NCBI RefSeq assembly: GCF_009708215.1
Contig: NZ_CP046175.1
Coordinates: 4,836,001 to 4,900,000, forward strand
Source: Occultella kanbiaonis
Lineage (GTDB): Bacteria; Actinomycetota; Actinomycetes; Actinomycetales; Beutenbergiaceae
Reading direction: 5' to 3'
DNA: 64,000 bases
A model generated the notes under the pieces. It did not search any database. It saw only the letters and a program-made list of their open reading frames with translations, and was not told where the DNA came from. A program made the position numbers and the translations under genes. Of this stretch, positions 47,422-62,189 are shown one piece after another; the stretch's first letter is position 1, and each line of letters starts with the position of its first letter.

Positions 47422-48682
47422 CCGGGCGCTCGCTCTCGGCGCGGGCCGCCCGCTGCAGCGGTGCGAGCCGGCTCAGCTGGGTCACGTGCTGTGGCCCGAG
47501 CTCATCGAGCGAGGCGACCCCGAGCAGGCGCATGGTCCGGGTGATCTCCGCCGTGAGGATGGCGATCATCCGGTCCACGCCCGCGCGGCCGCCGGCCATC
47601 AGGCCGTACAGGTAGGCGCGGCCGACGAACGTGAAGTCGGCACCGAGGGCGATCGCGGCGACGACGTCCGCCCCGCTCATGATGCCGGTGTCCAGCACGA
47701 TCTCGAGGTCGTTCCCGAGCTCGCGGGCCACCTCCGGCAGCAGGTGGAACGGGATCGGGGCCCGGTCGAGCTGGCGTCCGCCGTGGTTGGACAGCACGAT
47801 CCCGTCCACGCCGAGGTCCGCGACGCGCTTGGCGTCCTCGAGGGTCTGGATCCCCTTCACCACGACCTTTCCGGGCCACTGTTCGGAGACCCAGCGCAGG
47901 TCGTCGAAGTCCACGGTCGGGTCGAACATCGTGTTCAGCAGATCTGCGACGGTGCCGGACCAGCGGTCGAGGGAAGCGAACGCGAGCGGCTCGGTGGTGA
48001 GGAAGTCGATCCACCACTGCGGCCGCGGGATCGCGTTGATCACGGTCTTCGGGGTGAGGGAGGGCGGGATCGTCATGCCGTTGCGGGTGTCCCGCAGCCG
48101 GGCACCGGCGACGGGCACGTCGACGGTGACCAGGAGCGTGTCGAACCCGGCCTTCGCGGCCCGGTCCACCAGGGCCATCGACCGGTCCCGGTCCTTCCAC
48201 ATGTACAGCTGGAACCAGTTCCGCCCGCCGGGGTTCGCGGCGGCGACGTCCTCGATGGACGCGGTACCCATGGTCGACAGCGAGAACGGGATCCCGGCGG
48301 CGCCGGCCGCACCGGCACCGGCGATCTCGCCCTCGGTCTGCATCATCCGGGTGAAGCCGGTGGGGGCGATCCCGAACGGCAGCGCCACCGGGCCGCCGAG
48401 CACGGTCGCCGAGGTGTCCACGGCGGAGACGTCCCGCAGGATCGCCGGGTGGAACTCGATGTCCTCGAACGCCTGACGGGCACGGGCCAGCGACAGCTCC
48501 TTCTCGGCGGCGCCCTCGGTGTAGTCGAACGCGGCCTTCGGGGTGCGCCGCTTGGCGATCGTGCGCAGGTCCTCGACGTTGAGGGCGGCATCGAGGCGGC
48601 GTTTGCGACCGCTCAGTTCCGGTGCCTTGAACTGCATCAGCGGCGCGAGGTCGCGCACCTTCGGGATTCGACGCTGAACCAT
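47414..48682 (-). CDS. lldD: FMN-dependent L-lactate dehydrogenase / alpha-hydroxy-acid oxidase
   Basis: A 422-residue TIM-barrel flavoenzyme. FMN-site segments are [13 protein letters not shown] near 104-116, STMGTAS near 137 and [10 protein letters not shown] near 160. The catalytic His is in [15 protein letters not shown] near 298-312 and the phosphate site in [21 protein letters not shown]. It oxidises L-lactate to pyruvate. With the rhamnose operon producing lactaldehyde, then lactate, and a rhamnose-type operator 78 bases upstream, it probably completes rhamnose use. Confidence 0.88.
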
Positions 48683-48959: not shown

Positions 48960-49820
48960 GTGAGCATCCAGTCCCAGATCCAGGCGAAGCGCGACACCCT
49001 CGCCCCGTCGATGCGCCGCGTGGCGGATGCGATCCTGGCCGACCCCGGCCTGGTCCTGGAGGAGACGATCTCCGAGCTCGCTCGTAAGTGCGCCACGTCG
49101 GAGACCACGATCGTCCGCTTCTGCAGGACGCTCGGCCTGGCCGGATACGTCCAGCTCCGGCTCGCCCTGGCGACCGAGGTCGGCCGCGAGGGTGCCCGGC
49201 GGTCCCCGACGGCGACCTACGGTTCGGACATCTCCGCCGGCAGCACGCTGGAGGAGGTCGTGGCGAGCATCGGGTTCACCGAGAACCTCGGCATCGAGGA
49301 GACCATCAACAGCCTCGACATCGCCGAGCTCGGCCGCGTGGTGGACGCCATCGACGCCGCCACCCGGATCTCGGTCTACGGCGTCAGCGCGAGCGGCTGG
49401 AGCGCCGCCGACCTGCACCGCAAGCTGTTCCGGATCGGCCGGGTGGCCTATTCGTTCGCTGACGGGCACGACGCCGTCACCTCGCTCGGCCTGATGGGTG
49501 CCGGCGACGTCGCGGTCGGCTTCTCCCACCGTGGCACGACGGCAGAGGTGGTCCGGTTCCTCGAGGCCGCCCGGGAGCGCGGGGTGACCGCGGTGGCGAT
49601 CACGAACGCCGCCGGCTCCCCCGTGGCCGGAGCCGCCGATCTCGTGCTTCGGACCGCGGTCCGGGAGTCACCGTTCCGCTCCGGGGCGATGGCCTCCCGT
49701 ACCGCGCAGCTGCTGATCGTGGACTGCATCTTCGTCGCGGTCGCCCAGCGTCGGATGACCGAGACGGTCGACGCGCTGCGCGACACCCACGACGCCGTCG
49801 CCCAGTTCCGTGACAACTGA
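48960..49820 (+). CDS. MurR/RpiR-family transcriptional regulator
   Basis: A 286-residue regulator starting at GTG 48960. The N-terminal RpiR helix-turn-helix spans about residues 1-77 (LARKCATSETTIVRFCRTLG). A SIS sugar-isomerase-like ligand domain spans about 110-260 (RISVYGVSASGWSAADLHRK and GDVAVGFSHRGTTAEVVRFL). SIS domains bind phosphosugars; in MurR this is N-acetylmuramic acid 6-phosphate. Position next to MurQ and NagZ makes that ligand likely here. Confidence 0.9.
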   Translation: MSIQSQIQAKRDTLAPSMRRVADAILADPGLVLEETISELARKCATSETTIVRFCRTLGLAGYVQLRLALATEVGREGARRSPTATYGSDISAGSTLEEVVASIGFTENLGIEETINSLDIAELGRVVDAIDAATRISVYGVSASGWSAADLHRKLFRIGRVAYSFADGHDAVTSLGLMGAGDVAVGFSHRGTTAEVVRFLEAARERGVTAVAITNAAGSPVAGAADLVLRTAVRESPFRSGAMASRTAQLLIVDCIFVAVAQRRMTETVDALRDTHDAVAQFRDN

Positions 49821-49823
49821 GCC

Positions 49824-51017
49824 GTGGCCCCTGATTCCATGACCAGCCGAACCGCACACGCCGGGGCCCCGGGCGACGCGGGCGTCGAGCCGGAGCCGAC
49901 CGCCGCGCTGCAGGCCCTGCTGGACTCGGCCACCCGCAGCGCCGCTGCCGGCCCGGCCCCGATCGGAGCCGCCGACCCGGTCCCGGGCACAGCCGGCGCC
50001 GACGCGTTGATCGCCCACCGCGGGCGGGTGGTCGCCCGCGCCCGGGCCGGGTACGCCGCCCTGTTCGCGGCCGACGGCGCACTGCTCCCGACGGCGCAAC
50101 GGCTCCCGCTACCCGCCGATCCGGTGTTCGACGTCGCCTCCCTGACGAAGCTCCTGACCACGGTCACCGCCCTGGTCCAGGTGGACGCGGGTGTCCTCGA
50201 CCTCGACCGGCCGGTGGCCGAGCACCTCCCCGAGTTCGCCGAGGACCGTGCGCACGAGCGGGTCAGCGCCCGGCAGCTGCTCACCCACACGTCCGGCCTG
50301 CCCCCGGTGCTGCGCCTGTGGGAGGTGCCCGGCACCCGCGAGGACCGTGCCCGGCACGTGCTGGGCACGGAGCTGCGCTCCGAACCCGGCTCGGCCCACG
50401 CGTACTCGTGCGTTGGCTTCATGGTGCTCGGCCTCCTCCTCGAGCGCCTGACCGGGCGGACCTTGCCCACCCTCCTGACGGAGACCGTCACCGGGCCGCT
50501 GGCGATGACGAGCACCGGCTACGACCCGCGCGGAGTGGGCGAGCGCGTGGTGCCGACCGAGTACCAGTCCGTCCCCGACCGCGGCCTGGTGTGCGGCACC
50601 GTTCATGACGAGGCCGCCTGGAGCCTGGGGGCGTCCGGGAACGCCGGGGTGTTCAGCACCGGGCCGGACCTGGTCCGGTTCGCGGCCGCCCTCGGCGCCG
50701 ACGGGCCGGGGCTGCTCAGCGCAGACTCCCTGGCCCTGCTGCGCCGGGACGTGCTTCCCGCGTCCGAGCGGGACCGGGTCGGGTACGGGCAGGCGCTCGG
50801 TATGCGCCTCGGCGACGCCACGTTCATGGGCACCGACGACCCGTCGGTGATCGGGCACACCGGTTTCACCGGGACCTCGCTGGTGATCGACACCGAGGCG
50901 GACCTGATCGTGATCCTGCTGACCAACCGCGTGCACCCGGTCCGGACCGCGTTCGACGCCGGGCCGCTACGTCGCGCTGTGACCGCAACGGCCCGGGAGC
51001 ACGTCGCTCAGACCTGA
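49824..51017 (+). CDS. Serine beta-lactamase-like hydrolase
   Basis: A 397-residue cytoplasmic serine hydrolase of the beta-lactamase/EstB superfamily. The nucleophile motif SLTK lies in FDVASLTKLLTTV near 98-101. The second motif is YSC in AHAYSCVGFMVLG (normally YxN). VIGHTGFTG carries the third HTG motif near 345. Start is a GTG four bases after the RpiR stop; an ATG at 39 bases upstream of alternatives (49839) is also possible. Members of this group include the AmpH-like peptidases linked to murein recycling in other bacteria. That role is inferred from neighbours. Its 3' end overlaps murQ by 10 bases. Confidence 0.85.
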   Translation: MAPDSMTSRTAHAGAPGDAGVEPEPTAALQALLDSATRSAAAGPAPIGAADPVPGTAGADALIAHRGRVVARARAGYAALFAADGALLPTAQRLPLPADPVFDVASLTKLLTTVTALVQVDAGVLDLDRPVAEHLPEFAEDRAHERVSARQLLTHTSGLPPVLRLWEVPGTREDRARHVLGTELRSEPGSAHAYSCVGFMVLGLLLERLTGRTLPTLLTETVTGPLAMTSTGYDPRGVGERVVPTEYQSVPDRGLVCGTVHDEAAWSLGASGNAGVFSTGPDLVRFAAALGADGPGLLSADSLALLRRDVLPASERDRVGYGQALGMRLGDATFMGTDDPSVIGHTGFTGTSLVIDTEADLIVILLTNRVHPVRTAFDAGPLRRAVTATAREHVAQT

Positions 51018-51937
51018 GCGTCCAGGACCCCGCCGAGCCGGCCGCCGGCCTCGGCGAGCAGCCGCTCCGCGGCGGTCCGGTCCAGGCCGCGCGCCACCAT
51101 GATCGCGGCGACCGGGACCCGTTGACCGGAATCGGTCAGGGCCTGCGCCGCCGCTCGGGGGTCCGCGCCCGTGATGGTCGAGACCAGGCGCTCGGCCCGC
51201 GCCCGGAGCTTGACGTTGCTCACGGACAGATCGACCATCAGGTTCCCGTAGGTCTTGCCGAGCCTGATCATCACGCCGGTGGAGATCATGTTCAGGACCT
51301 GCTTCGTGGCGGAGCCCGCCTTCAGCCGGGTGGATCCGGCGAGCACCTCCGGGCCCACCTCGACCTCGATCGGCAGGTCCACGGCTGACCCGAGCTCGGA
51401 TCCGGTGTTGCAGGCCAGGCCGACGGTCAGCGCGCCGGCGGCGCGCGCCGCCCGGACCCCGCCGAGCACGAACGGGGTGCGACCGCTGGCGGCGATCCCG
51501 ACGACCGTGTCGATCGCGGTGACGCCGAGGTCGGCGATCTCCTGGGCGCCGAGCTCGGCACGGTCCTCCGCGCCCTCGACGGACTCGAACATGGCACCGC
51601 GCCCGCCCGCGATCACGCCGACGACCTGGCCGGGATCCGTGTGGAACGTGGGCGGACACTCCGAGGCGTCCACCACCCCCAGTCGCCCCGAGGTCCCGGC
51701 ACCGAGGTAGACCAGTCGCCCACCGGACTCCATCCGGACCGCGACGGCCTCCACGACCGCAGCGACCTGCGGCAACACGGCCCGTACCGCGAGCGGCACC
51801 CCCGCCTCGGCCTCGTTCATGGCCCGCAGTACGTCCAGCGTCGGGATCGCGTCGAGCCGTCGGTACCGCTCGTCGATCTGCTCGGTCCCGAGCAGGTCGG
51901 TCCGCTCGCCCGTCGCCGGTTGGGAGTCAGCCACCAT
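51008..51937 (-). CDS. murQ: N-acetylmuramic acid 6-phosphate etherase
   Basis: A 309-residue SIS-domain etherase. Hallmarks are GRLVYLGAGTSGRLGVVDAS near 73-92 and ECPPTFHTDPGQVVG with the catalytic Glu near 93. C-terminal LGKTYGNLMVDLSVSN is also present. It removes D-lactate from MurNAc 6-phosphate to give GlcNAc 6-phosphate. A MurNAc kinase is needed to make its substrate unless a PTS does so, and neither is in this window. It is divergent from the NagZ gene across a region with an inverted repeat. Confidence 0.95.
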   Translation of the reverse strand: MVADSQPATGERTDLLGTEQIDERYRRLDAIPTLDVLRAMNEAEAGVPLAVRAVLPQVAAVVEAVAVRMESGGRLVYLGAGTSGRLGVVDASECPPTFHTDPGQVVGVIAGGRGAMFESVEGAEDRAELGAQEIADLGVTAIDTVVGIAASGRTPFVLGGVRAARAAGALTVGLACNTGSELGSAVDLPIEVEVGPEVLAGSTRLKAGSATKQVLNMISTGVMIRLGKTYGNLMVDLSVSNVKLRARAERLVSTITGADPRAAAQALTDSGQRVPVAAIMVARGLDRTAAERLLAEAGGRLGGVLDAQV

Positions 51938-51964
51938 GTACCTCTTCCTCCATGTTCAAACGAA

Positions 51965-52020
51965 TTCAAGTAAACCAGCAACTGCGCCTCGATGAAAATA
52001 ATTGACGGCCTCTACTTGAA
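51965..52020. promoter_or_regulatory. Inverted repeat in the murQ-nagZ divergent promoter
   Basis: TTCAAGTA at 51965-51972 and its reverse complement TACTTGAA at 52013-52020 are separated by 40 bases, between the murQ start (51937) and the nagZ start (52051). They are candidate half-sites for the RpiR/MurR-type regulator encoded 3 kb away. Confidence 0.45.
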
Positions 52021-52050
52021 GTGCGCCAATGATTGACCCACGATGGGCAT

Positions 52051-53604
52051 ATGCTCCACGACCGCGGCTCCGACCGCTCGCTCGAGTCCCTCGCCCATTC
52101 CGTGTTGTGGCCCGGCTTCACCGGCACGCGAGCGCCCGACTGGTTGCTGCGCGCACGCGATGCCGGGACGCCGGGAGCGCTGCTGTTCGCGCACAACATC
52201 GACCCCGATGACGCGGGCCAGGTGTCCCGCCTGGTGGGCGAACTGGATGGCACGCGTGGCAGCCTCGTCGGAGCCGACGAGGAGGGTGGCCTGGTGACCC
52301 GGCTGCACGCCCGGGACGGCTCGCCCAGCCCCGGCCACGCGGCGCTGGGTCGCCACGACGTGGCGGCGGACACGGAGATTGTCGCCGAGCAGATCGGCGC
52401 CGAGCTCGCGCGCCACGGCATCGCCATCGACCTGGCCCCCGTCGCCGACGTGAACAACAACCCGGCGAACCCCGTCATCGGCAGCCGCTCCTTCGGAGCC
52501 GATCCCGAGCTGGTGGCGCGGCACACCGCCGCCTACGTGCGCGGACTGCAGCGCGCGGGCACCGCGGCCTGCGCGAAGCACTTCCCCGGCCACGGCGACA
52601 CCACCACCGACTCCCATCTCGCCGTCAGCAGGATGGACGTCAGCGCCGACGAGCTCGAGGAGATCCACCTCGCCCCGTTCCGGGCTGCGATCGAGGCCGG
52701 CGTCCGCTCCGTGCTGACGGCGCACATCATCGTGCCCGTCCTCGGCCCGGAACCCGCGACCGTGAACCCGCGGGCGCTGTCGATGCTGCGTGGGATGGGC
52801 TTCGACGGGCTGATCATCTCCGATGCGGTCGAGATGGAGGCCATCGCGAGCACGCTCGGGATCGGCCCGGGTACGGTCGCGGCGCTCGCCGCCGGCGTGG
52901 ACCTCGTCTGCCTCGGCAATCAGGGCGCGGACCCGCGCACGCCCGAGAACCCGCACCCGGACGAGTTCGCCTACCGGACGGTGCACACCGCCGTCGTCGA
53001 CGCCATCCGCTCGGGATCGCTCCGCGCAGAGCGCCTCGAGGAGGCGGCCGAGCGGATCGCCGCCCTCCGTACCTGGGTCGCCGCGCACCGCACGAGCGGG
53101 GGCGCGGACGGGTCGCCCGGGACCTCGGAGACCGCGGCTCCGGGCGCCCCGCCGGTCGCACCGAACCTCCCGACGGCCACCGCGGCACGGGTGGCCGCGC
53201 ACGCCTGCGACGTCCGCGGCGACGTCCGGCTCCGTGCGGACGCGCCCGTCACCGTGATCGACGCCAGGGTGCTGCGCAACCGCGCGGCCGGGCGGGAGGC
53301 GGACCTGGTGGGCCGGGCGCTTGCCGCGCGCCGGGCGATCAGCCACCACCGGTTCGATGCCGCTGGCACCGCAGAGCTCCTGCGCGCGGACCCGCCGGGG
53401 GAGGTCGTGCTGGTGGTCGACCAGCCGCACCTCGCCGCCGCGGAGCGCCACGCGCTCACCGACGTGCTGGCCTGGCACCCGGACACGGTGGTGGTCCGCC
53501 TGGGCTGGCCCGGAGACCTCGGGGTGGACCTGCCCCGGCTGGTCACCACGCACGGCTCGAGCGCCGTCAGCGCGTCCGCCGTGGCCGACCTCCTGCTGGG
53601 GTGA
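52051..53604 (+). CDS. nagZ: Beta-N-acetylglucosaminidase / GH3-family glycosidase (NagZ-like)
   Basis: A 517-residue GH3 enzyme from ATG 52051 (a TTG six codons earlier is possible). The NagZ-type His-Asp dyad motif CAKHFPGHGDTTTDSHL lies near 178-194, and the nucleophile Asp is in GLIISDAVEMEAI near 253-265. A C-terminal domain of about 160 residues follows the barrel, as in Bacillus-type two-domain NagZ. No signal peptide is visible, so it should cleave GlcNAc from imported muropeptides in the cytoplasm. Confidence 0.92.
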   Translation: MLHDRGSDRSLESLAHSVLWPGFTGTRAPDWLLRARDAGTPGALLFAHNIDPDDAGQVSRLVGELDGTRGSLVGADEEGGLVTRLHARDGSPSPGHAALGRHDVAADTEIVAEQIGAELARHGIAIDLAPVADVNNNPANPVIGSRSFGADPELVARHTAAYVRGLQRAGTAACAKHFPGHGDTTTDSHLAVSRMDVSADELEEIHLAPFRAAIEAGVRSVLTAHIIVPVLGPEPATVNPRALSMLRGMGFDGLIISDAVEMEAIASTLGIGPGTVAALAAGVDLVCLGNQGADPRTPENPHPDEFAYRTVHTAVVDAIRSGSLRAERLEEAAERIAALRTWVAAHRTSGGADGSPGTSETAAPGAPPVAPNLPTATAARVAAHACDVRGDVRLRADAPVTVIDARVLRNRAAGREADLVGRALAARRAISHHRFDAAGTAELLRADPPGEVVLVVDQPHLAAAERHALTDVLAWHPDTVVVRLGWPGDLGVDLPRLVTTHGSSAVSASAVADLLLG

Positions 53605-53621
53605 GACCGCCTGCGGCGACC

Positions 53622-54473
53622 TCACCCGGCCAGGCGCCGTCGGGGGTTCGGCGCCGCGGCCAGGAGTCGCTGCGTGTACTCGTGGGTGGGTGCGTCGATC
53701 ACCTGTTCGCTCGAGCCACGTTCGACGACCGTGCCGTGGTACATCACCAGGGTCTGCGCGGAGTACGCACGGGCTGAGCCCAGGTCGTGGGTGATGTACA
53801 GGACCGCGAGCTCCTCGGTCCGGCGCAGCTGGTCCAGGAGATCGAGCATCCCCTTGCGGATCGTCACGTCCAGCATCGAGACGGGTTCGTCCGCGAGCAG
53901 CACCTTCGGTTCGGCGGCGAGCGCGCGAGCGAACGAGATCCGCTGCCGCTCGCCACCGGAGAGCTCGTGCGGGAACCGGTGCAGGTAGCGCTCCGCCGGT
54001 GCCAGCTCCACCTTCCGGAGCAGCGCGAGGCTGCGTTCCTCCACCTCGTCCGCGCTCATCGGACCGCCGTGGATCCGCAGGGCCCGGCCGAGGGTGTAAC
54101 TGACCCGGTGCAGGGGGTTCAGCGAGGAGAACGGATCCTGCAGGGTCATCTGCACGGTGCCGGTGTAACGGATGAACGCTCGGCCACGGGTGGCCGAGAC
54201 CGGCTCGCCGTTCAGCAGGAGCTCGCCGGAGGTCAGCGGCATCAGTTGGGCGAGGAGCCGGCCGACCGTGCTCTTCCCCGAGCCGCTCTGACCCACGAGG
54301 GCGGTGACCTCACCGGCGCGCAGCTCCAGCGAGACGTCGTCCACGGCACGGAAGTACTCCCGGCCGAAGACTCCCGCCCGCTTGTTCGTGCGGAAGTCCT
54401 TCACCAGGTTCCGTGCCTCGAGGACGACGCGGCCCTGCTCGGGCTCGGGCGGATTCACGACGTCGGTACTCAT
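53622..54473 (-). CDS. Peptide-type ABC transporter ATP-binding protein (OppF/DppF-like)
   Basis: A 283-residue ATPase with Walker A GQSGSGKST at 61-69, signature LSGGERQRISFARAL near 170 and Walker B VLLADEPVSMLD near 190. The C-terminal HEYTQRLLAAAPNP is typical of the Opp/Dpp group. It is last in the seven-gene minus-strand operon and overlaps the upstream permease-ATPase stop/start by four bases. Confidence 0.93.
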   Translation of the reverse strand: MSTDVVNPPEPEQGRVVLEARNLVKDFRTNKRAGVFGREYFRAVDDVSLELRAGEVTALVGQSGSGKSTVGRLLAQLMPLTSGELLLNGEPVSATRGRAFIRYTGTVQMTLQDPFSSLNPLHRVSYTLGRALRIHGGPMSADEVEERSLALLRKVELAPAERYLHRFPHELSGGERQRISFARALAAEPKVLLADEPVSMLDVTIRKGMLDLLDQLRRTEELAVLYITHDLGSARAYSAQTLVMYHGTVVERGSSEQVIDAPTHEYTQRLLAAAPNPRRRLAG

Positions 54474-56356
54474 ACGAGGGCTCCCATGTCGGCGAGTGAG
54501 GCCAGCAGTGCCTGCGTGTACGGATGACGGGGCTCGGCATAGACCTCGAGGGCCGGCCCGTACTCGACCAGCCGGCCACGCTGCATCACGGCGATGCTGT
54601 CGGAGACCTCCAGCAGCAGTGACAGGTCGTGCGTGGTGAAGATGATCGCGAAGCCGTACTCGTCCCGCAGCGCCATCACCTGGTCGAGCACCTCGCGTTG
54701 GATCAGCAGGTCCAGCGCCGTGGTCGGCTCGTCCATGATGATCACGTCCGGCTCAAGCACGAGCGCGATGGCGATCGCGACCCGCTGCTTCATCCCGCCG
54801 GAGAGCTCGTGCGGATAGGAGGTGACCCGGCCGGCGTCGATGCCGACCTTCTCCAGCATCGTGCGCGCCAGCGCCTCCCGCTCCCGGGCCGGCATGCTCG
54901 GCCGGTGCACGCGAAGCACGTCGTCGAACTGCGCCCCGACGCTGGTCACGGCGTTCAGCGCGTTCATGGCGCTCTGGAACACGATCGCGATCTCGTCCCA
55001 GCGGTAGCCGCGCAGTTCCTCCGCGGACAGCCCGAGCAGGTCGATGGCCTCCGCCGTGCCCGGACCGGCGTCGCTCGACGCACTCGAACGGGCGCGAGCG
55101 GCCCGGTGGTAGGTGATGGATCCCCCGGTCACCTGCGCCGGGTTGCGGAGCAGCCGGGTGATCGCATTGGTCAGGGTGGACTTGCCGCTCCCGGACTCCC
55201 CCGCCAGGCCGAGGATCTCCCCGCGGTGCAGGGTGATCGAGACGTCGTCGACGGCGTGCACCACCTGGTCGACGCTGGGGTAGTCGACCTTGAGGTTGCG
55301 GACCTCGATGATGGGATCCCCTGGCACGTCGATGGGGCGGAGCTGCGCCTCGGTCGCGGCGCCACCCGAAGACTCGGGGCCCGACACCTCGTTCACGCCG
55401 TCCTCGTGCGGGATCGGCGCCATGCCCGGCGAGTCGACGCCCGAGGCCACGGCCGCGGCGCCCGCGGTGCTCAGCGCGGCCGCGTGCGGCCCGCTGGTGC
55501 GCACCGCCCGGCCCCGGCTCTTGCCGGTGCGCAGCCGCGGGTTGGAGTACTCGTCGATGCCGAAGTTGATCAGGGCCAGGCCGGCGCCGAGGACCGCGAT
55601 CGCCAGGCCGGGCGGTACGAACCACCACCAGGCGCCGTACAGGAACGCCTGCGCGCTCTGCGCGAAGTAGAGCATCGACCCCCAGCTCGTGGTCGTCAGC
55701 GAACCGAGGCCCAGGAAGGACAGCCCGGCCTCGGCCAGGACCGCACCGATCACGGAGAACAGGAAGCCGGAGGCGATCAGCGGCATGGCGTTCGGCATGA
55801 TCTCGGAGAAGACGATCCGGGTGCGCGACTCACCGGTGGCCCGAGCGGCCTCGACGAACTCCCGTCGCCGCAGTGACATGGTCTGGGCGCGCAGGACCCG
55901 GGCCGAGCCGGCCCACGAGGTGATCGCGATGACGAACGCCACCGAGACCATCCCCCGCGAGGGCAGGTATCCGGTCAGCACGATCAGCAGCGGCATCCCG
56001 GGAACGACCAGGAACACCGCCGTGAGGATGTACAACAGGTCGTCCGAGATCCCTCGGAAGTAGCCACCGATGACGCCGACGAGGACCGAGACGATCTGCG
56101 AGATGATGCCCGCGAACAGCCCGACGCCGAGCGAGACACGGGCGCCGTACACGAACTGGGCGAAGACGTCCTGACCGGTCTGGGTGGTGCCGAGCCAGTG
56201 CGCGCCGGACGGCGGCTGGAGCAGGTCGGTCCCGCTGGCCTGCGGTGAGTAGCTCGTCAGCATCGGGCCGAACACGGCCATCAGCACGAAGAAGATGGCG
56301 ATGATCAGGCCAGCGCGCACCTTCCCGGACGCCGGCACGAGTCGTGAGAGGTTCAT
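54470..56356 (-). CDS. Peptide-type ABC transporter permease (DppC) fused to ATPase (DppD)
   Basis: A 628-residue fusion. Residues 1-300 form a DppC-like permease with about six helices and an EAA-type loop (RRREFVEAARATGESRTRIV near 165-184). After a Gly/Ala/Pro linker comes a complete ATPase. It has Walker A GESGSGKST near 395, signature LSGGMKQRVAIAIAL near 515 and Walker B VIIMDEPTTALDLL near 537. Continuous frame through the linker, with no stop or alternative internal start, supports a true fusion. The start is ATG 56356, two bases after the DppB stop. Confidence 0.92.
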   Translation of the reverse strand: MNLSRLVPASGKVRAGLIIAIFFVLMAVFGPMLTSYSPQASGTDLLQPPSGAHWLGTTQTGQDVFAQFVYGARVSLGVGLFAGIISQIVSVLVGVIGGYFRGISDDLLYILTAVFLVVPGMPLLIVLTGYLPSRGMVSVAFVIAITSWAGSARVLRAQTMSLRRREFVEAARATGESRTRIVFSEIMPNAMPLIASGFLFSVIGAVLAEAGLSFLGLGSLTTTSWGSMLYFAQSAQAFLYGAWWWFVPPGLAIAVLGAGLALINFGIDEYSNPRLRTGKSRGRAVRTSGPHAAALSTAGAAAVASGVDSPGMAPIPHEDGVNEVSGPESSGGAATEAQLRPIDVPGDPIIEVRNLKVDYPSVDQVVHAVDDVSITLHRGEILGLAGESGSGKSTLTNAITRLLRNPAQVTGGSITYHRAARARSSASSDAGPGTAEAIDLLGLSAEELRGYRWDEIAIVFQSAMNALNAVTSVGAQFDDVLRVHRPSMPAREREALARTMLEKVGIDAGRVTSYPHELSGGMKQRVAIAIALVLEPDVIIMDEPTTALDLLIQREVLDQVMALRDEYGFAIIFTTHDLSLLLEVSDSIAVMQRGRLVEYGPALEVYAEPRHPYTQALLASLADMGALV

Positions 56357-56358
56357 GG

Positions 56359-57345
56359 TCAGCCTTCCTGACGCGTGCGGGGGTCGAGGAACACGTAGAC
56401 GACGTCTGCCACGAGGTTCGCGGCGATCACCGCCAGCGAGATGATCAGGAAGAGTCCCTGCATCAGCGGGAAGTCCTGGTTCTGGACCGCCTCGAACAGG
56501 GTGTAGCCGACGCCGGGATAGTTGAAGATCACCTCGGTGAGCATCGACCCACCGACGACGGCGCCGAGGGAGAGCGCGAACCCCGTCACCGAGGGCAGGA
56601 TCGCGTTCCGGGCCGCGTAGTTGACGAGGACCATCCGCTTCGGCAGGCCCTTCGCCTCGGCCATGGTCACGTAGTCCTCGCCGAGGACGGTCACCGTCAT
56701 GTTCCGCATGCTCAGCACCCATCCGGCGAAGGAGGCCAGGATGATCGTGATCGCCGGCAGGATCCCGTGATAGAGGACGGAGGAGATGAACTCCCAGTCC
56801 CAACCCGGCACCAGCCCCGGCTCGTAGGCGTGCGAGACCGGGAACCAGCCGAGGTTCACCGAGAGGACCAGGACCAGGATCAGTGCCATCCAGAAGTACG
56901 GAACGGCGTTGAGGAAGGTGAGGGCCGGGAGCAGGTGGTCGGTCCAGGAGCCGCGCCGCCAGGCCAGCACCACACCGAGGCCGGTGCCGATCAGGAAGCT
57001 GATCACCGTGGTGATGCCGACCAACCCGATCGTCCACGGCAGCGCACCCAGCACGATCTCGGAGACCGGGACCGGGAAGAAACCGATCGAGAGGCCGAGG
57101 TCGCCGGCTGCCAGCGAGGTGAGGTAGTCCCAGTACTGCACGTGCAGCGGGGCGTCGGTGAGCCCGTAACTCTCCGCGATCGCGTCCATGGCGGCCGGGT
57201 CGATCCGCCCCGACAGCCGTTCCACGAGGAGGGCGACGGGATCGCCCGGCATCAGCCGGGGGATCAGGAAGTTCATGGTGAGCGCAGCCCAGGCGATGAA
57301 CACGTACAGCATCACCTTGCGCAGGAGGTACTTCAAGCGGGACAA
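56359..57345 (-). CDS. Peptide-type ABC transporter permease (DppB-like)
   Basis: A 328-residue permease with six helices. The N-terminal MSRLKYLLRKVMLYVFIAWA leads to FLIPRLMPGDPVALLVERLS, the DppB family opening. The EAA loop is in YVTMAEAKGLPKRMVLVNYA near 227-246. It pairs with the DppC half of the fusion protein. A GC hairpin separates it from the binding protein gene upstream. Confidence 0.94.
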   Translation of the reverse strand: MSRLKYLLRKVMLYVFIAWAALTMNFLIPRLMPGDPVALLVERLSGRIDPAAMDAIAESYGLTDAPLHVQYWDYLTSLAAGDLGLSIGFFPVPVSEIVLGALPWTIGLVGITTVISFLIGTGLGVVLAWRRGSWTDHLLPALTFLNAVPYFWMALILVLVLSVNLGWFPVSHAYEPGLVPGWDWEFISSVLYHGILPAITIILASFAGWVLSMRNMTVTVLGEDYVTMAEAKGLPKRMVLVNYAARNAILPSVTGFALSLGAVVGGSMLTEVIFNYPGVGYTLFEAVQNQDFPLMQGLFLIISLAVIAANLVADVVYVFLDPRTRQEG

Positions 57346-57378
57346 CCTCTCGGATCGGATTCGGCCGGGCGGCGGAGG

Positions 57379-57408
57379 CGGGCGGGCGGCGGGTGCGCCG
57401 CCCGCCCG
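57379..57408 (-). terminator. GC-rich hairpin between binding protein and permease genes
   Basis: CGGGCGGGCGGC at 57379-57390 pairs perfectly with GCCGCCCGCCCG at 57397-57408 with a six-base loop, 12 bases after the binding-protein stop. It probably attenuates or protects the transcript, so that more binding protein than permease is made. Confidence 0.65.
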
Positions 57409-57420
57409 ACCTCGCCGCGG

Positions 57421-59076
57421 TCAGCCGGCGGGCGTCAGGTTCGTGACGACCAACAGGTTGTCCGGGAACTGGAACGGTGCGCCGAGGGCGTACGGGTCCT
57501 CCTCGGTCGGGAACCCCTCCCACCGTGCGGTGTTGTACTGGAACCAGTTCGGGGACTGCAGCATCGCGATGACCGGGAGCTGCTCGACCATGATCTGCTC
57601 GAGTCCGTCGAACGCGGCCTGCTGCTCCTCGGGGTCGCTGGTCGCCGCGAAGGATTCCAGCAGTGCGTCGGCCTCGTCGTCGTAGTAGCGGTTGTAGTTC
57701 GAGACGACGGTCTCGCCCGGTCCGGTCCGGTACTCGGAGCTCATCATCGAACGGAACAGCGTGTACGGGGTGAGGCCCATCGCCACGGACGCGATGGTCA
57801 TCTGGTAGTTACCGGAGTTGCGGGCCTCCAGCCAGGCCTCGAACGAGACACCCTGGGGCTCCACGACCACGCCGATCTTCGCGAGCTGCTCCTGGAGCAG
57901 GCCGCTCATCGTCACCCAGTCCACGTAGCTCGACGGGATCTGCAGCGCGTAGGACATCCGCTCGCCGTCCGGGGTGGTGCGCACACCGTCGCTGCCCAGC
58001 ACATAGCCGGCCTCGTCCAGGATGGCGTTCGCCTCATCGACGTCGTAGCTGAACTCGGCGTCGGCGTAGTCCTCGCTCATCACCGACTCGTACGCCGGCA
58101 ACGGCAGCCCGGTGGGGTGGGCAGCCGGGGTGTATCCCTGCATGGCGACCTCGGAGAGCTGGTCGCGGTCGATGCCGGCGCTGAGTGCCTGGCGCACCGC
58201 CACGTCGTCGAACGGTGCCGTCTGCGTGTTCACGAGCAGGTTCACGAGCCCGTCACCGGGGTACCAGTAGGACCGGTGCTCGGGGTCCCCGGAGACATAG
58301 ATCTGGTCGATGTTGGCGACGAACCCGCCGGACCAGTCGAACTCGCCGGCCTGCAGCGAGCTGTTGAACGTCTGGTCGGAGGACGCCGGGTAGCGGACCT
58401 GCTCGACCTCGACCTCGTCGGCGTTCCAATAGCCCTCGTTCGCGCTGAGCGTGTAGAGCTGCTGCCCGAACTGCTCGAGCACGAACGGCCCGGTGGCCAC
58501 CGGCTCCTCGTTCTGGAACTCGATCGGGTCAACGTCGGCGAACACGTGCTCCGGGACCATCACGGTGTTCGCGATGGAGGCCTGGAACGCGAACGCGACA
58601 CTGTTGAAGGTCACGTCCACGGTGAGGGGGTCGGTGGCGACCGCGTCGGCGAGGTCGAGCGCACCCGCGTTCGCCGCCGGGTTGTCCCGCATCAGGTTGA
58701 AGGTGAAGGCGACGTCGTCGGCGTCGAACGCCTCGCCGTCGGACCAGGTGACGCCCTCGCGGAGCACGAACGTGACGACGGTGCCCTCCTCGTTGAACTC
58801 CATCGACTCGGCCAGCCACGGCTGCGCGTCACCGGGGACCATCGGGGTGGCGATCATCAGCGGCTCGTACAGCATGCCCTTGGTGCCCTGGAGCGCCGTC
58901 GGGGAGAACGGGTTGAAGTTCTGCTGATAGGTGTTGGCCGTGTTGGCGTGGATCGTCAGCGGCGCGACCGCGCCGGCGTCCTCGCCGGCGTCGTCGCCGC
59001 CGCCGGTACAGGCCGACAGGGCGAGGGCGCCGGCCGTCAGCACGGCGGCCAGGCGAATGAACCTCGGGGTTCTCAT
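57421..59076 (-). CDS. ABC transporter substrate-binding lipoprotein, family 5
   Basis: A 551-residue lipoprotein. Signal MRTPRFIRLAAVLTAGALAL ends in lipobox LSAC (Cys at 23). The mature protein has the SBP family 5 pattern: MLYEPLMIATPMVPGDAQPW, then FVLREGVTWSDGEAFDADDV near 117-136 and NTQTAPFDDVAVRQALSAGI near 283-302. Family-5 proteins bind peptides, murein tripeptide (MppA) or oligosaccharides. With NagZ, NamZ and MurQ around it, a muropeptide or MurNAc-GlcNAc ligand is inferred. Start at 59076 follows from the signal peptide. Confidence 0.93.
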   Translation of the reverse strand: MRTPRFIRLAAVLTAGALALSACTGGGDDAGEDAGAVAPLTIHANTANTYQQNFNPFSPTALQGTKGMLYEPLMIATPMVPGDAQPWLAESMEFNEEGTVVTFVLREGVTWSDGEAFDADDVAFTFNLMRDNPAANAGALDLADAVATDPLTVDVTFNSVAFAFQASIANTVMVPEHVFADVDPIEFQNEEPVATGPFVLEQFGQQLYTLSANEGYWNADEVEVEQVRYPASSDQTFNSSLQAGEFDWSGGFVANIDQIYVSGDPEHRSYWYPGDGLVNLLVNTQTAPFDDVAVRQALSAGIDRDQLSEVAMQGYTPAAHPTGLPLPAYESVMSEDYADAEFSYDVDEANAILDEAGYVLGSDGVRTTPDGERMSYALQIPSSYVDWVTMSGLLQEQLAKIGVVVEPQGVSFEAWLEARNSGNYQMTIASVAMGLTPYTLFRSMMSSEYRTGPGETVVSNYNRYYDDEADALLESFAATSDPEEQQAAFDGLEQIMVEQLPVIAMLQSPNWFQYNTARWEGFPTEEDPYALGAPFQFPDNLLVVTNLTPAG

Positions 59077-59119
59077 GTGGTGACCTTTCGATGGGTGGAG
59101 CGGGGGAACAAAGGTGGCG

Positions 59120-60112
59120 TCAGTCGCCCAGGTCGGCACGCAGCACGTCGAAGCGCCGGGTGATGCGGAACCCGGACCGCAGGTAGAGGTGCCCGGCCGG
59201 TGAGTCCTCGCCGGTCCACAGGAACCAGGCGCTCTGGGCGCCCTCGGCGCGCATCCGGGTGAGGGTCTCGTGCAGCAGCACCTTTCCGAGGCCGGTGCCG
59301 CGAGACGTCTCGTCCACCCCGTACGGGCCGAACCGTTCCCGCAGGCCGCGGTAGGCGCCGTAGGTGGAGAAGCCCACGACGGGACCCTCGGGGTGGCGCG
59401 CCAGCAGCACCCTGTCGATCCGTCCGTGCTGCATGACGGAGTCCCGGACCGCCTCACCCCAGTCCGGTGCCAGCCGCTGCGCGGCGAAGGAGATCACCTC
59501 GGGCAGGTCGTCGGGGCGGGCGACGGCGAACGCGTACCCCTCGGCGACGCGCGCCGCACGCAGGTCGAGCACATCGGCCGGGGTCGCGTACCCGGCCAGA
59601 TCGAGGCTCATCGCCGCGGCCGTGTACAGCCGCCGGAAGCCGGCCCGCTCGAACAGCCGGGCGGCGTCCGGGTAGGCGGCCGCGTCGAGGCCCGGCACGA
59701 AGTAGGCCAGCGGATACGCGGCGTAGTTGACCCAGTGGGCACCCTTGCCGGCGAGGAACACCCCGGCCCGCCGCACCAGCTCGGTCCCGATGCCCTGCCG
59801 GCGCGCCTCGGGCCGGACGCAGCCGATGGTGATCCACCCGCCGTCGGGATCGGGCCCGATGCCCCGCCCGGCGCGCACCGCGTAGACGAAGCCCTGAGCC
59901 TGCCCAGTGGCCGCGTCCACGGCCACGATCAGGCCGTCGGGGTCGAAGTTCGGGTCCAGCAGGACTGTGTGGGTGAACCAGTCCTCGCTGACGGCGTCGC
60001 GCGGCATCGCGACCGTCGTGAGCTCGGCGAGCCGGGCGGCATCACCGGAACGGTGGGCACGATAGGTGACCTGCAAGGGAATGACCTTTCCGATCTGTTC
60101 GATGGTGCTCAT
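59120..60112 (-). CDS. Tandem GNAT-domain N-acetyltransferase
   Basis: A 330-residue protein of two GNAT units. The first has the acetyl-CoA loop in ITIGCVRPEARRQGIGTELV near 93-112. The second has FGPYGVDETSRGTGLGKVLL near 267-286 with RGTGLG. Both loops appear intact. It could acetylate an amino sugar or peptide amine released from murein, judged by the operon context; no substrate evidence exists in the sequence. Confidence 0.85.
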   Translation of the reverse strand: MSTIEQIGKVIPLQVTYRAHRSGDAARLAELTTVAMPRDAVSEDWFTHTVLLDPNFDPDGLIVAVDAATGQAQGFVYAVRAGRGIGPDPDGGWITIGCVRPEARRQGIGTELVRRAGVFLAGKGAHWVNYAAYPLAYFVPGLDAAAYPDAARLFERAGFRRLYTAAAMSLDLAGYATPADVLDLRAARVAEGYAFAVARPDDLPEVISFAAQRLAPDWGEAVRDSVMQHGRIDRVLLARHPEGPVVGFSTYGAYRGLRERFGPYGVDETSRGTGLGKVLLHETLTRMRAEGAQSAWFLWTGEDSPAGHLYLRSGFRITRRFDVLRADLGD

Positions 60113-60158
60113 TGACGGTGGCTGGGCGGCGGGTACCTCCCTCCGTCGGAGGGCAGGT

Positions 60159-60854
60159 TCAGTCCAGGGGCGCCATGCCCCAAGTCCGCCCGGAGGAGAG
60201 CGCGACGGCGTGGGGCACGCCGGCGAGGCAGCCCCGGGTGATCATCTGGGCCGAGTAGAAGTCGATGTAGCGGAAGCCGTAGGTCTCCCCGCGAGCGAAC
60301 GCCTGGCCGCTGATGGCCTCGGTCCAGAGCCTGTGCGCCTCCGTGGATATCTCCACGAAGAGGTCCGCATCGAAGCCGGTCGCGTCCTCCCAGTTCTCCG
60401 TGAACAGCAGCCGGCCGACACCGTGGCGCGCGGTCTCGTCCTTCCACCCGGGCAGGCCGGCCAGGAACCGACCCCGCTCGGCGACGATCGAGGCGTTCTC
60501 GTGGTCGGTGTGGATGCTGCGCCGCCAGTGCGCGAGCAGCGTGGTCGGCCTGATCTCACGAATCAGGTCGGCGACGCGTTCAGCGACCGCGTCGTCGGCC
60601 GTGAGGAACCCGTCGGAGATGTCGTCGAAGACGACCACCTCGGCGCCGATCCCGGCCGCGAACGCCCGAGCCTCGGCGATCTTCTGCTCGCGGTAGTCCG
60701 TGGCGGACATCCGAGGGTGCCCCCGCTCCCCCGGCGTGAGCGCCACGAGAACGGACCGGCCGCCGTCGAGCACGTTCTGCGCCAGCAGCGGCCCAGCGGC
60801 GAGGTCCATATCGCCGATGTGACCGCCCACGGCCATGATCGTCTGAGGTGACAA
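60159..60854 (-). CDS. PIG-L-like deacetylase with altered catalytic motif
   Basis: A 231-residue LmbE/PIG-L fold protein. The N-terminal motif reads AVGGHIGDMD instead of the usual AHPDDE. His12 and Asp15, the metal ligands by alignment to MshB, are kept, but the first Asp (general base in MshB) is Gly14. The third metal ligand motif HTDHENAS near 115 is present. Other members remove acetyl from GlcNAc-type sugars. Between NamZ and the transporter, an amino-sugar N-deacetylase role is suggested but the missing Asp makes activity uncertain. Confidence 0.85.
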   Translation of the reverse strand: MSPQTIMAVGGHIGDMDLAAGPLLAQNVLDGGRSVLVALTPGERGHPRMSATDYREQKIAEARAFAAGIGAEVVVFDDISDGFLTADDAVAERVADLIREIRPTTLLAHWRRSIHTDHENASIVAERGRFLAGLPGWKDETARHGVGRLLFTENWEDATGFDADLFVEISTEAHRLWTEAISGQAFARGETYGFRYIDFYSAQMITRGCLAGVPHAVALSSGRTWGMAPLD

Positions 60855-60888
60855 CGGATTCGTCCTTCGTTCGTGTTCGGCGGGGTGT

Positions 60889-62079
60889 TCAGACGTAGAG
60901 AAGTGCGTCCGGCGGCACGATGGGCGTCGGTGGACCGCCGTCGAGGATCGCGCTCAGGTCCGCCCCGCGATCGATTCCCTCGCGCAGGGCCGGCGAGCCC
61001 CAGAGGAGGTCGATGAACGGCGGGCGGCCGGGCCGCGCCGGCAGCCAGATCGACTCCCCGGGATACAGGCCGGCGACGGCCTGGAGCACGGCCACGCCGG
61101 TCGCGATCGGATCGAACGCCGCGGCGTCGCGCACGTGCAGTTGGGCGCCGTGCACCACGTCGCCGTGCCACTTGCTGAACGTGGGGCGGAAGACGGCCTC
61201 CCGGAAGGCGACGCCGGGCAGGTCCCGCTCGGTCAGCGCGACGGCCAGGCGCCCGTCGGTCCAGGACGCTCCGAACAGCTCGAACGGCTTCGTGGTGCCG
61301 CGGCCCTCCGAGAGCACGGTGCCCTCCAGCAGACCGATGGCGCCGAAGACGGTCGCGGTGGTCAGCGTTGGCATGTTCGGCGACGGCATGACCCAGTCGT
61401 CGTCCGGCGCCCGGCGCTGCCGGCTCCAGCCGGCCAGCTCGATCACCTCGAGATCGGCTCCGGTGCCGACTGCGTCCGGTACGTGGGCGACGTTGAACCA
61501 CCGTGCCAGCTCGCCGAGGGTGAGTCCGTGCTGGAGCGGGATCGAGACCCGGCCCACGAAGCTGGCGCAGGAAGGATCGAGCCCGGGTCCGGTCCGGACC
61601 AGGCCACCGAGGGGATTCGGCCGGTCGAGCACCACGATGCGGATCCCGACCCGTGCCGCGGAGCAGAGCAGGTCGAAGAGCGTCCAGGTGTAGGTGTAGA
61701 ACCGAACGCCGATGTCCTGGAAGTCCACCAGGATCGTGGCCACCCCGGACTCGCGCAGCAGCCCGTCGAGCCGCGGCCCGTCGCAGCGGTAGGTGTCCAA
61801 CACCGGCAGACCGGTGCCGAGGTCGACGCCGTCGCCCTCACTCTCGCCGGCCTGCACCGCACCCCAGTAGCCGTGCTCCGGCGTGAAGATCGTGGTCAGC
61901 TCCACGCCCGCACCCAGCAGCGCGTCGACGCCACGGCGCAGGTCCTCCGTGACGGACGTGTAGTTCGCGCACAGGCCGATGGGGCCGTCGCCGATCAGGC
62001 CGGGTTCTGCGATCGCCCGGCCCAGGCCCGTTCGGACCCGCGCCACATCGTCCACCTCGACCACTGGCCGTTCCCCCAC
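60889..62079 (-). CDS. namZ: DUF1343 protein, NamZ-type exo-beta-N-acetylmuramidase
   Basis: A 396-residue protein of the DUF1343/GH171 family, whose Bacillus member NamZ removes terminal MurNAc from peptidoglycan fragments. Conserved features include FTPEHGYWGAVQAGE near 65-79, ILVDFQDIGVRFYTYTWTL near 116-134 with the catalytic Asp/Glu region and MPSPNMPTLTTATVF near 231. SEGRGTTKPFELFGA near 258 is also present. No signal peptide is visible, unlike the secreted Bacillus enzyme, so a cytoplasmic role on imported MurNAc-GlcNAc is likely. It is first gene of the operon running to 53622. Confidence 0.9.
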   Translation of the reverse strand: MGERPVVEVDDVARVRTGLGRAIAEPGLIGDGPIGLCANYTSVTEDLRRGVDALLGAGVELTTIFTPEHGYWGAVQAGESEGDGVDLGTGLPVLDTYRCDGPRLDGLLRESGVATILVDFQDIGVRFYTYTWTLFDLLCSAARVGIRIVVLDRPNPLGGLVRTGPGLDPSCASFVGRVSIPLQHGLTLGELARWFNVAHVPDAVGTGADLEVIELAGWSRQRRAPDDDWVMPSPNMPTLTTATVFGAIGLLEGTVLSEGRGTTKPFELFGASWTDGRLAVALTERDLPGVAFREAVFRPTFSKWHGDVVHGAQLHVRDAAAFDPIATGVAVLQAVAGLYPGESIWLPARPGRPPFIDLLWGSPALREGIDRGADLSAILDGGPPTPIVPPDALLYV

Positions 62080-62189
62080 TCGTCATCGACTGATGTAAGT
62101 ACGCTACACAGATCGTCAGACTAGGGTCAATTAGTTACGTCGACGTTACGCGCGCTTCCCACGCGTGCCGTGCCCCGCGGAGCAGCCTC

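What the first reader, a model, noticed from the sequence alone, without database searches (positions are those of the whole stretch)
48960..62079. Peptidoglycan-salvage island using a peptide-type ABC importer instead of a PTS
MurR-like regulator, MurQ, NagZ and NamZ recall the Bacillus murein-recovery cluster, but the MurP PTS and amidase are absent. A seven-gene operon supplies a family-5 binding protein, DppB, a DppCD fusion, DppF, a double GNAT and a PIG-L protein. NagZ and NamZ lack signal peptides, suggesting that intact disaccharides or muropeptides are imported and digested inside. No MurNAc kinase is present, so the route to MurNAc 6-phosphate is open.
Basis: partly seen in the sequence, partly recalled or inferred. 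Interest (0 to 1): 0.75.

Follow-up and report, generated by a model that had tools for sequence, protein, structure and literature searches.

The report
Sugar importer operon recycling bacterial walls
A soil actinobacterium carries a gene cluster that probably imports intact two-sugar pieces of bacterial cell wall with a chitin-sugar-type pump and digests them inside the cell, which would make it a candidate for an importer still unknown in this phylum.

Summary
The cluster is real: MurR-type regulator, MurQ, NagZ, and a seven-gene NamZ-to-DppF operon, found in Occultella, Ruania, Isoptericola and a further genus. "ABC importer instead of PTS" holds: the single-contig genome has no PTS_EIIC (PF02378) match. 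Three points of the reading fail. (1) The importer is not peptide-type: its binding protein scores 257 bits with Vibrio chitin-oligosaccharide binders, 70 with DppA, and in 21 of 40 related loci a family-1 sugar importer stands near the same genes. (2) An amidase candidate is present: 49824-51017 is a PBP4B/AmiE-like beta-lactamase-fold protein. (3) Kinase candidates exist elsewhere: AnmK beside a second MurQ, and two BadF-family genes. A palindrome, GTCAATNATTGAC, lies before MurQ/NagZ and before NamZ and recurs in some, not all, relatives. The PIG-L protein is odd: HIGD replaces the catalytic HPDD (8 of 8 orthologues; 21 of 21 paralogue loci hold HPDD), and 15 of 15 PIG-L genomes tested have MurQ. 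The double GNAT weakly resembles GlmA, a glucosaminide N-acetyltransferase. Best reading: import of muramyl disaccharides, digestion inside. New variant of a known kind; the substrate is inferred.

The parts
48960..49820 (+). MurR-like RpiR-family regulator (HTH_6 + SIS); the open frame reaches up to 48801, start at 48960 more likely
   Evidence: HTH begins at residue 56 of the long frame; orthologues in other genera match from residue 40-49 on
49824..51017 (+). AmiE/YfeW(PBP4B)-like serine hydrolase of the beta-lactamase fold without signal peptide; possible muramyl-L-alanine amidase-type enzyme
   Evidence: PF00144 198 bits; best NCBIfam PBP4B 91.9 bits, cut-off 385; SLTK and HTG motifs
51008..51937 (-). 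MurQ, MurNAc 6-phosphate etherase
   Evidence: 379 bits against a cut-off of 168; TIGR00274 342.5 against 302
51994..52006 (+). operator-like palindrome copy 1 (2 mismatches to GTCAATNATTGAC), between MurQ and NagZ
52025..52037 (+). operator-like palindrome copy 2 (1 mismatch; the only site with fewer than 2 mismatches in the genome)
52051..53604 (+). cytoplasmic NagZ (GH3 beta-N-acetylglucosaminidase); frame opens at TTG 52033
   Evidence: signature KHFPGHGDTTTDSH; no signal peptide
53622..54473 (-). DppF-type ATPase
54470..56356 (-). fused permease-ATPase (DppC + DppD)
   Evidence: OppC_N, BPD_transp_1 and ABC_tran in one frame
56359..57345 (-). DppB-type permease
   Evidence: 74-99% identical in the other clusters of this kind
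57421..59076 (-). family-5 binding lipoprotein of the oligosaccharide clade (cluster C, subcluster IV)
   Evidence: SBP_bac_5; LSAC lipobox read by eye
59120..60112 (-). tandem GNAT, weakly GlmA-like
   Evidence: Acetyltransf domains; best solved relatives 5kga/5kf1, E 4.5e-8
60159..60854 (-). PIG-L/LmbE-fold protein with HIGD in place of HPDD
   Evidence: PF02585; alignments A1 and A3; model pLDDT 92.9
60889..62079 (-). cytoplasmic NamZ, exo-beta-N-acetylmuramidase
   Evidence: NamZ_N 199.9 and NamZ_C 132 bits; TPEHG motif; no signal peptide
62126..62138 (-). operator-like palindrome upstream of the NamZ operon (2 mismatches)

Best explanation
The island is a regulon for salvage of peptidoglycan sugars. 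An ABC importer with a chitobiose-type (not peptide-type) binding lipoprotein takes up muramyl oligosaccharides, most likely the disaccharides GlcNAc-MurNAc and/or MurNAc-GlcNAc. In the cytoplasm NagZ removes terminal GlcNAc, NamZ removes terminal MurNAc, the AmiE-like hydrolase clears any remaining stem peptide, and the GlmA-like GNAT re-acetylates de-N-acetylated sugars. MurNAc or 1,6-anhydroMurNAc is phosphorylated by a kinase encoded elsewhere (AnmK and/or a MurK-like BadF kinase). MurQ then splits MurNAc 6-phosphate into GlcNAc 6-phosphate and D-lactate. The MurR-like protein controls the MurQ/NagZ and NamZ promoters through a GTCAATNATTGAC-type palindrome. Shown here: gene content, layout, clade of the binding protein, the palindrome, lack of a PTS_EIIC. 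Inferred: substrate, each enzyme's reaction (from family), regulator-operator pairing, kinase, and the role of the PIG-L protein.
For: Genes and motifs. No PTS_EIIC match in the genome. Binding protein alone: Vibrio chitin-oligosaccharide binding proteins 257 bits, the 4pft/1vr5/4jsd/2o7i/4pfu group (recalled as Thermotoga oligosaccharide binders; 4pfu is named a mannoside binder) 153-183, next a nickel-binding protein 97, DppA 70; the profile gives the same order of groups. Of ten VhCBP sugar contacts, the critical Asp365 is identical in 9 of 9 aligned proteins, and Trp363 and Trp513 stay aromatic in 9 of 9; the other seven differ in the window's protein, several being smaller (against passages of PMC8449061). 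Among 40 PIG-L loci, 34 have MurQ or NamZ in the fetched stretch, 34 the tandem GNAT, 6 the window's importer type and 21 a family-1 (CUT1-type) importer pair within 5 kb (families checked). AnmK or a BadF kinase stands in some sister clusters. Palindrome before both transcription units. Cytoplasmic NagZ/NamZ against a separate pair with signal-peptide-like starts at 2.55 Mb.
Against: No binding or growth data. Seven of ten VhCBP contact residues differ, so the sugar is uncertain and plain chitobiose is not excluded. The AmiE-like gene would also suit imported muropeptides. The kinases are not in the palindrome's genome-wide list, are unproven, and the BadF genes match solved kinases only weakly. 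13 of 40 PIG-L loci show neither importer. The palindrome was chosen after looking at the sequence; 10 of the 28 loci scanned, Isoptericola and one Ruania among them, hold no site of 10 of 12 or better, and 3 of the 7 other genome sites looked at lie by sugar-importer-like genes. The structure model of the binding protein failed (pLDDT 38), so the pocket could not be inspected.
Confidence: 0.65

Rival explanations
1. The importer carries muropeptides or murein peptides; sugars are trimmed after import and the AmiE-like enzyme releases the peptide.
For: Dpp-type permeases and ATPases; AmiE-like gene in the cluster; two MurQ loci of the same order (L110, L113) do pair MurQ, AnmK and an AmiE-like gene with Dpp-type permeases and a family-5 protein, and the L110 protein is of the dipeptide/nickel/heme clade: best 149.5 bits (5u4o), DppA 133, murein-peptide binder 83, chitin-oligosaccharide binder 64. 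YejBEF-YepA of Agrobacterium is a shown muropeptide ABC importer (passages of PMC9790009).
Against: The window's own binding protein is not of that clade (257 against 70 bits), and family-1 sugar importers stand in its place in sister clusters.
Confidence: 0.17
2. The importer is a chitobiose or chito-oligosaccharide importer that happens to share the operon with muramyl salvage, NagZ serving both.
For: Closest solved relatives bind (GlcNAc)n (PMC8449061).
Against: Seven of ten contact residues differ; NamZ is the first gene of the same operon; the importer keeps company with NamZ, and in most cases MurQ and MurR, in several genera.
Confidence: 0.12
3. About PIG-L and GNAT only, compatible with any importer: they form an N-acyl exchange pair. 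PIG-L removes an unusual N-acyl group such as N-glycolyl from muramic acid and the GNAT puts acetyl back before the MurQ pathway.
For: GNAT present at 34 of 40 PIG-L loci; all 15 PIG-L genomes tested hold MurQ; the fold is that of amino-sugar deacetylases.
Against: The general-base Asp of the family is Gly in the 8 of 8 orthologues aligned; which of these species make N-glycolyl muramic acid was not tested; 6 of 40 loci have no GNAT detected.
Confidence: 0.3

Closest known systems
B. subtilis murQ-murR-murP-amiE-nagZ-namZ (ybbIHFEDC) cluster
   Same: MurQ, MurR-type regulator, AmiE-like enzyme, NagZ, NamZ (layout from passages of PMC5061867, where the last gene is still ybbC of unknown function; that ybbC is namZ is recalled)
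   Different: no MurP PTS; ABC importer instead; NagZ, NamZ and AmiE-like proteins without signal peptides; extra PIG-L and GNAT
Vibrio chitin-oligosaccharide binding proteins (VhCBP/VcCBP, subcluster C-IV)
   Same: best solved relatives of the binding protein; critical Asp and two aromatic sandwich positions kept
   Different: seven of ten sugar contacts changed; sits with NamZ/MurQ
YejBEF-YepA of Agrobacterium
   Same: ABC importer of the peptide-transporter type that takes the place of a standard importer in wall recycling
   Different: imports muropeptides; YepA is reported only in Alphaproteobacteria (passages of PMC9790009); the window's protein belongs with sugar binders
GlmA, glucosamine/glucosaminide N-acetyltransferase (5KF1; that the crystal protein is from Clostridium acetobutylicum is recalled)
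   Same: tandem GNAT of like length (328 and 330 aa); best solved relative of 59120-60112
   Different: weak similarity (35.8 bits); activity untested
LmbE/PIG-L deacetylases and GalB hydratase
   Different: HIGD in place of HPDD; among the three solved relatives shown as alignments only GalB also lacks the first Asp (HSAD)

Membership tests
Bacillus-type MurNAc recovery cluster | MurQ etherase | tested here: met
   over cut-off in three models
Bacillus-type MurNAc recovery cluster | MurP PTS transporter | tested here: not met
   no PTS_EIIC (PF02378) match in the whole genome
Bacillus-type MurNAc recovery cluster | NagZ and NamZ | tested here: met
   (NagZ 159.8 bits, below the PRK05337 cut-off of 207, signature intact; both NamZ domains over cut-off)
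Bacillus-type MurNAc recovery cluster | amidase AmiE | tested here: inconclusive
   PF00144 met, PBP4B model best but 91.9 bits against a cut-off of 385; activity not testable
Bacillus-type MurNAc recovery cluster | secreted hydrolases | tested here: not met
   no hydrophobic N-terminal stretch in NagZ, NamZ, AmiE-like; NagZ2/NamZ2 with signal-peptide-like starts lie elsewhere
Subcluster C-IV oligosaccharide binding proteins | closest solved relatives are C-IV members | tested here: met
Subcluster C-IV oligosaccharide binding proteins | four residues conserved in the five C-IV members of PMC8449061 (Asn204, Trp363, Asp365, Trp513) | tested here: inconclusive
   of nine proteins: Asp365 identical in 9; Trp363 Y4/W4/F1; Trp513 F6/Y3; Asn204 aligned to Asp in 7, Ala in 1, Asn in 1, gap placement uncertain
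Subcluster C-IV oligosaccharide binding proteins | binds an oligosaccharide | not testable with these tools
   needs binding assay
Peptide-type Dpp/Opp importer | binding protein of the peptide clade | tested here: not met
   DppA 70 bits against 257 for chitin-oligosaccharide binders
LmbE/PIG-L N-deacetylases | fold | tested here: met
LmbE/PIG-L N-deacetylases | HXD1D2 motif with D1 as general base (PMC4101496 passage) | tested here: not met
   HIGD in 8 of 8 orthologues
GlmA glucosaminide N-acetyltransferase | tandem GNAT with sequence similarity to GlmA | tested here: inconclusive
   E 4.5e-8, 35.8 bits
GlmA glucosaminide N-acetyltransferase | acetylates glucosaminides | not testable with these tools
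   needs assay

The most novel reading that the evidence does not exclude
Actinobacteria have a dedicated muramyl-disaccharide ABC importer that arose from chitobiose-type importers, and their muramic acid breakdown includes a step, shared with some Clostridia, carried out by a base-less PIG-L protein whose chemistry is not N-deacetylation (for instance a metal-dependent hydration or lyase step, as in GalB).
Probability: 0.2. Interest if true: 0.82.

Novelty: new variant of a known kind. Interest (0 to 1): 0.6.

Why it matters
How actinobacteria import muramic acid is open: S. coelicolor has MurQ but no MurP ortholog (PMC5061867 passage), and a 2026 mycobacterial preprint still writes of uptake 'by an unknown transporter' (PMC13041923, Discussion read). 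The cluster and its relatives name concrete candidates (a C-IV importer and two family-1 variants) that can be expressed and tested, and they point to an unexplained PIG-L subfamily that keeps company with MurQ.

Tried and rejected
AlphaFold of the binding protein with 9 sequences failed (pLDDT 38.3), so no pocket analysis was made. PIG-L as a replacement of MurQ (a second lactyl etherase) was considered and set aside: 13 PIG-L genomes whose fetched locus lacks MurQ, and 2 with it, all carry MurQ (15 of 15). This is not a proof: 5 of the 15 are Kribbella. LldD next door (47414-48682, FMN_dh) as part of D-lactate use is unsupported: among the cluster loci searched it is beside the cluster only in Occultella, and LldD-type enzymes usually take L-lactate (recalled). 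The APH search for an AmgK-type kinase gave 36 matches and decides nothing. NagA: two matches below the curated cut-off. Of the other genome sites of the palindrome I looked at 7 loci: three (L134, L135, L142) lie at genes that look by eye like sugar ABC importers, one (L133) by a GntR-like regulator; not followed up. Palindrome scan of 28 loci: no site of 10 of 12 or better in L048, L055, L057, L058, L059, L062, L070, L073, L076 and L089; sites in L056, L060 and L079 are not at cluster promoters. MurQ-centred control: 40 of the 47 MurQ places were fetched (left out: both of G000, the same cluster in G009, and four others); no PIG-L or GNAT was detected in any of the 40, a family-1 permease pair within 8 kb in 12, DppB+DppC in 2, neither detected in 26. 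PTS genes were not looked for in those 40. So PIG-L is an accessory, not a constant, of MurQ loci. Bias: the 40 named PIG-L loci were found with the patterns VG[GA]HIGDM and FAAGIGAE, so 44 of 44 HIGD (43 distinct genomes' genes, L046 and L054 being the same) is partly built in; the fair figures are 8 of 8 orthologues (7 found by the unseeded search, plus the window) against 21 of 21 paralogue loci with HPDD (a six-frame motif scan of each locus). Same genomes, by equal contig length: L043/L050, L044/L051, L045/L052, L046/L054, L048/L055; alignment A3 left out L051 and L054.
Full report
Setting. The window is part of a complete, single-contig genome of 5,648,255 bases. Three named Occultella species (Actinomycetota, Micrococcales, Ruaniaceae) carry the same cluster at 80-99% protein identity, and the three genomes listed as of the window's genus have contigs of the same lengths, so the window comes from an Occultella.

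Gene content. Pfam and NCBIfam give: RpiR-type regulator (48960-49820, +), PF00144 serine hydrolase (49824-51017, +), MurQ (51008-51937, -), NagZ (52051-53604, +), and on the minus strand NamZ, PIG-L, tandem GNAT, binding lipoprotein, DppB, a DppC-DppD fusion and DppF (62079 down to 53622). Gaps inside this seven-gene run are 34, 46, 43, 75, 2 and -4 bp, so one operon is likely. It scores well under that model's cut-off (91.9 against 385), so I call it AmiE/YfeW-like; that B. subtilis AmiE is of the same fold is recalled.

Location of digestion. NagZ, NamZ and the AmiE-like protein lack an N-terminal hydrophobic stretch, while the binding protein has one with a lipobox. The same genome has a second NagZ-NamZ pair, both with signal-peptide-like starts, at 2.5486-2.552 Mb. 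So outer and inner hydrolases probably coexist, and the window's pair would act on imported oligosaccharides.

No PTS, and kinase candidates elsewhere. PTS_EIIC (PF02378) is absent from the genome (0 matches; 7 of 14 control genomes ring). AnmK is present in full at 1.7706 Mb (320 bits), followed by a second MurQ and an RpiR regulator and preceded by a family-1 binding protein and permeases. Two BadF/BcrAD genes over the Pfam cut-off lie at 5.034 and 4.708 Mb. The first matches N-acetylglucosamine kinases best (35 bits) and the second ties between a hexokinase and 8zo3, a MurNAc/GlcNAc kinase (36 bits): weak evidence. In some sister clusters a kinase is inside: AnmK beside NagZ in Candidatus Ruania gallistercoris (L048/L055; PF03702 305.6 bits), AnmK beside MurQ in Acrocarpospora (L069), and a BadF-family kinase beside MurQ in 5 of 6 Microbacterium loci, both Georgenia loci, Glaciibacter, Leifsonia and one unnamed Microbacteriaceae. 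The Georgenia kinase (PF01869) matches a hexokinase at E 1.6e-16 and 8zo3 at E 4e-11. So the route to MurNAc 6-phosphate is probably AnmK or a MurK-like kinase.

The importer is of the sugar clade. The window's binding protein alone scores 257 bits with Vibrio chitin-oligosaccharide binding proteins, 153-183 with a group that I recall as Thermotoga oligosaccharide binders, 97 with a nickel-binding protein and 70 with DppA; a profile of nine relatives gives the same order of groups. As a contrast, a family-5 protein from another MurQ locus of the same order (L110: binding protein, DppB, DppC, MurQ, AnmK, AmiE-like, DppF-type ATPases) scores 133 with DppA, 83 with the murein-peptide binding protein and 64 with the chitin-oligosaccharide binder. 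So peptide-clade importers beside MurQ do exist, but the window's is not one. VhCBP contacts (passages of PMC8449061) map onto the window by the HMMER alignment with an offset of two between chain index and paper numbering, which fits all ten residues. Asp365, whose loss cost VhCBP 8.6 kcal/mol, is Asp386 in 9 of 9; Trp363 becomes Tyr (4), Trp (4) or Phe (1); Trp513 becomes Phe (6) or Tyr (3). Glu10, Asn204, Ser221, Asn409, Phe411, Arg436 and Phe437 differ in the window's protein, several being smaller. This fits a bulkier or different sugar; it does not name it.

Conservation and importer swapping. A PIG-L profile scan of named genomes gave 40 loci. Within the fetched stretches (some short) 34 of 40 have the tandem GNAT, 34 MurQ or NamZ, 24 MurQ, 24 NamZ, 22 an RpiR regulator, 16 a BadF-family kinase, 6 AnmK; 6 carry the window's importer type (Occultella x3, Ruania x2, Isoptericola), 21 a family-1 permease pair within 5 kb, 13 neither. 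I call the family-1 importers CUT1-type from SBP_bac_1 plus two permeases. Their genes lie between GNAT and PIG-L in 8 loci (Kribbella x3, Leifsonia, Acrocarpospora, Rugosimonospora, Sphaerisporangium, Microbacterium resistens), after PIG-L in 10 (other Microbacterium x5, Georgenia x2, Agromyces, Glaciibacter, Brachybacterium), and otherwise in 3 clostridial or MAG loci. One module keeping its enzymes but changing between a family-1 and a C-IV importer argues for a sugar cargo.

Regulon. The palindrome GTCAATNATTGAC occurs at 51994-52006 and 52025-52037 (MurQ/NagZ promoter region) and 62126-62138 (before NamZ). A degenerate form with one mismatch allowed matches 4 times in the window (3 sites, one on both strands) against 0.47 expected. 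It recurs before NamZ in the other Occultella genomes, in two of three Ruania genomes, in L049 (perfect, plus a second copy after PIG-L) and in L053 (perfect), and before MurR in Leifsonia. It was not found at this strength in 10 of the 28 loci scanned, among them Isoptericola and the third Ruania. Genome-wide there are 19 sites with up to 2 mismatches against 7 for the reversed control; the only one-mismatch site is in the MurQ/NagZ promoter, and 3 of the 19 are in this cluster. The motif was chosen after inspection, and MurR binding is inferred.

Print check. Searches for NamZ/MurQ/transporter (25 of 64 listed), muropeptide ABC importers (3 of 3), PIG-L with MurNAc/MurQ (15 of 16), MurNAc uptake in actinobacteria (15 of 37) and MurK/CUT1/Streptomyces (12 of 86) listed no paper that, by title and start of abstract, describes this module or a MurNAc ABC importer in actinobacteria. 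Only open-licence papers are held. The mycobacterial preprint PMC13041923 (Discussion read) states that the transporter is unknown.

Verdict. A real and conserved muramyl-sugar salvage cluster, a new variant of the MurQ-NagZ-NamZ system, with an oligosaccharide-type ABC importer.

Noticed in passing
G000:C1 1.767-1.774 Mb (L009 5305-11613): Second salvage locus: family-1 sugar importer, AnmK, second MurQ and RpiR regulator in a row; similar sets, often with NagZ or a BadF kinase added, in L092, L094, L099, L124, L125 and L127.
   Followed up: partly
G000:C1 2.5486-2.552 Mb (L012 7606-10939): Adjacent NagZ and NamZ with signal-peptide-like starts, the probable extracellular pair.
   Followed up: partly
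L110 3836-14755 and L113: MurQ with AnmK, AmiE-like gene and a Dpp importer whose binding protein (tested for L110) is of the peptide clade: a better candidate than the window for a muropeptide ABC importer.
   Followed up: partly
L105, L129 (also in part L096, L116, L121): NagZ2- and NamZ2-like genes with AmiE-like, RpiR, MurQ, family-1 importer and BadF kinase: a Bacillus-like cluster with ABC importer plus kinase in place of the MurP PTS.
   Followed up: partly
window 46132-48682: A polysaccharide pyruvyl transferase (PF04230) and an FMN-dependent dehydrogenase (PF01070) flank the cluster in the four Occultella genomes seen.
   Followed up: no
window 62190-63806: GH31 glycosidase just upstream of NamZ; at the same place in two of the three other Occultella genomes, not in O. 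glacieicola.
   Followed up: no
L046/L054: AnmK beside NagZ in Ruania albidiflava appears broken (pieces in different frames); an intact copy stands in Candidatus Ruania gallistercoris.
   Followed up: no
L049 6224-9509: Two tandem binding proteins (61% and 50% identical to the window's) in one cluster of the same family.
   Followed up: no
G000:C1 5033813 (L010): BadF-family kinase next to a frame that looks by eye like CutC.
   Followed up: no
L134, L135, L142: Three further two-mismatch palindrome sites of the genome lie at genes that look by eye like sugar ABC importers.
   Followed up: no
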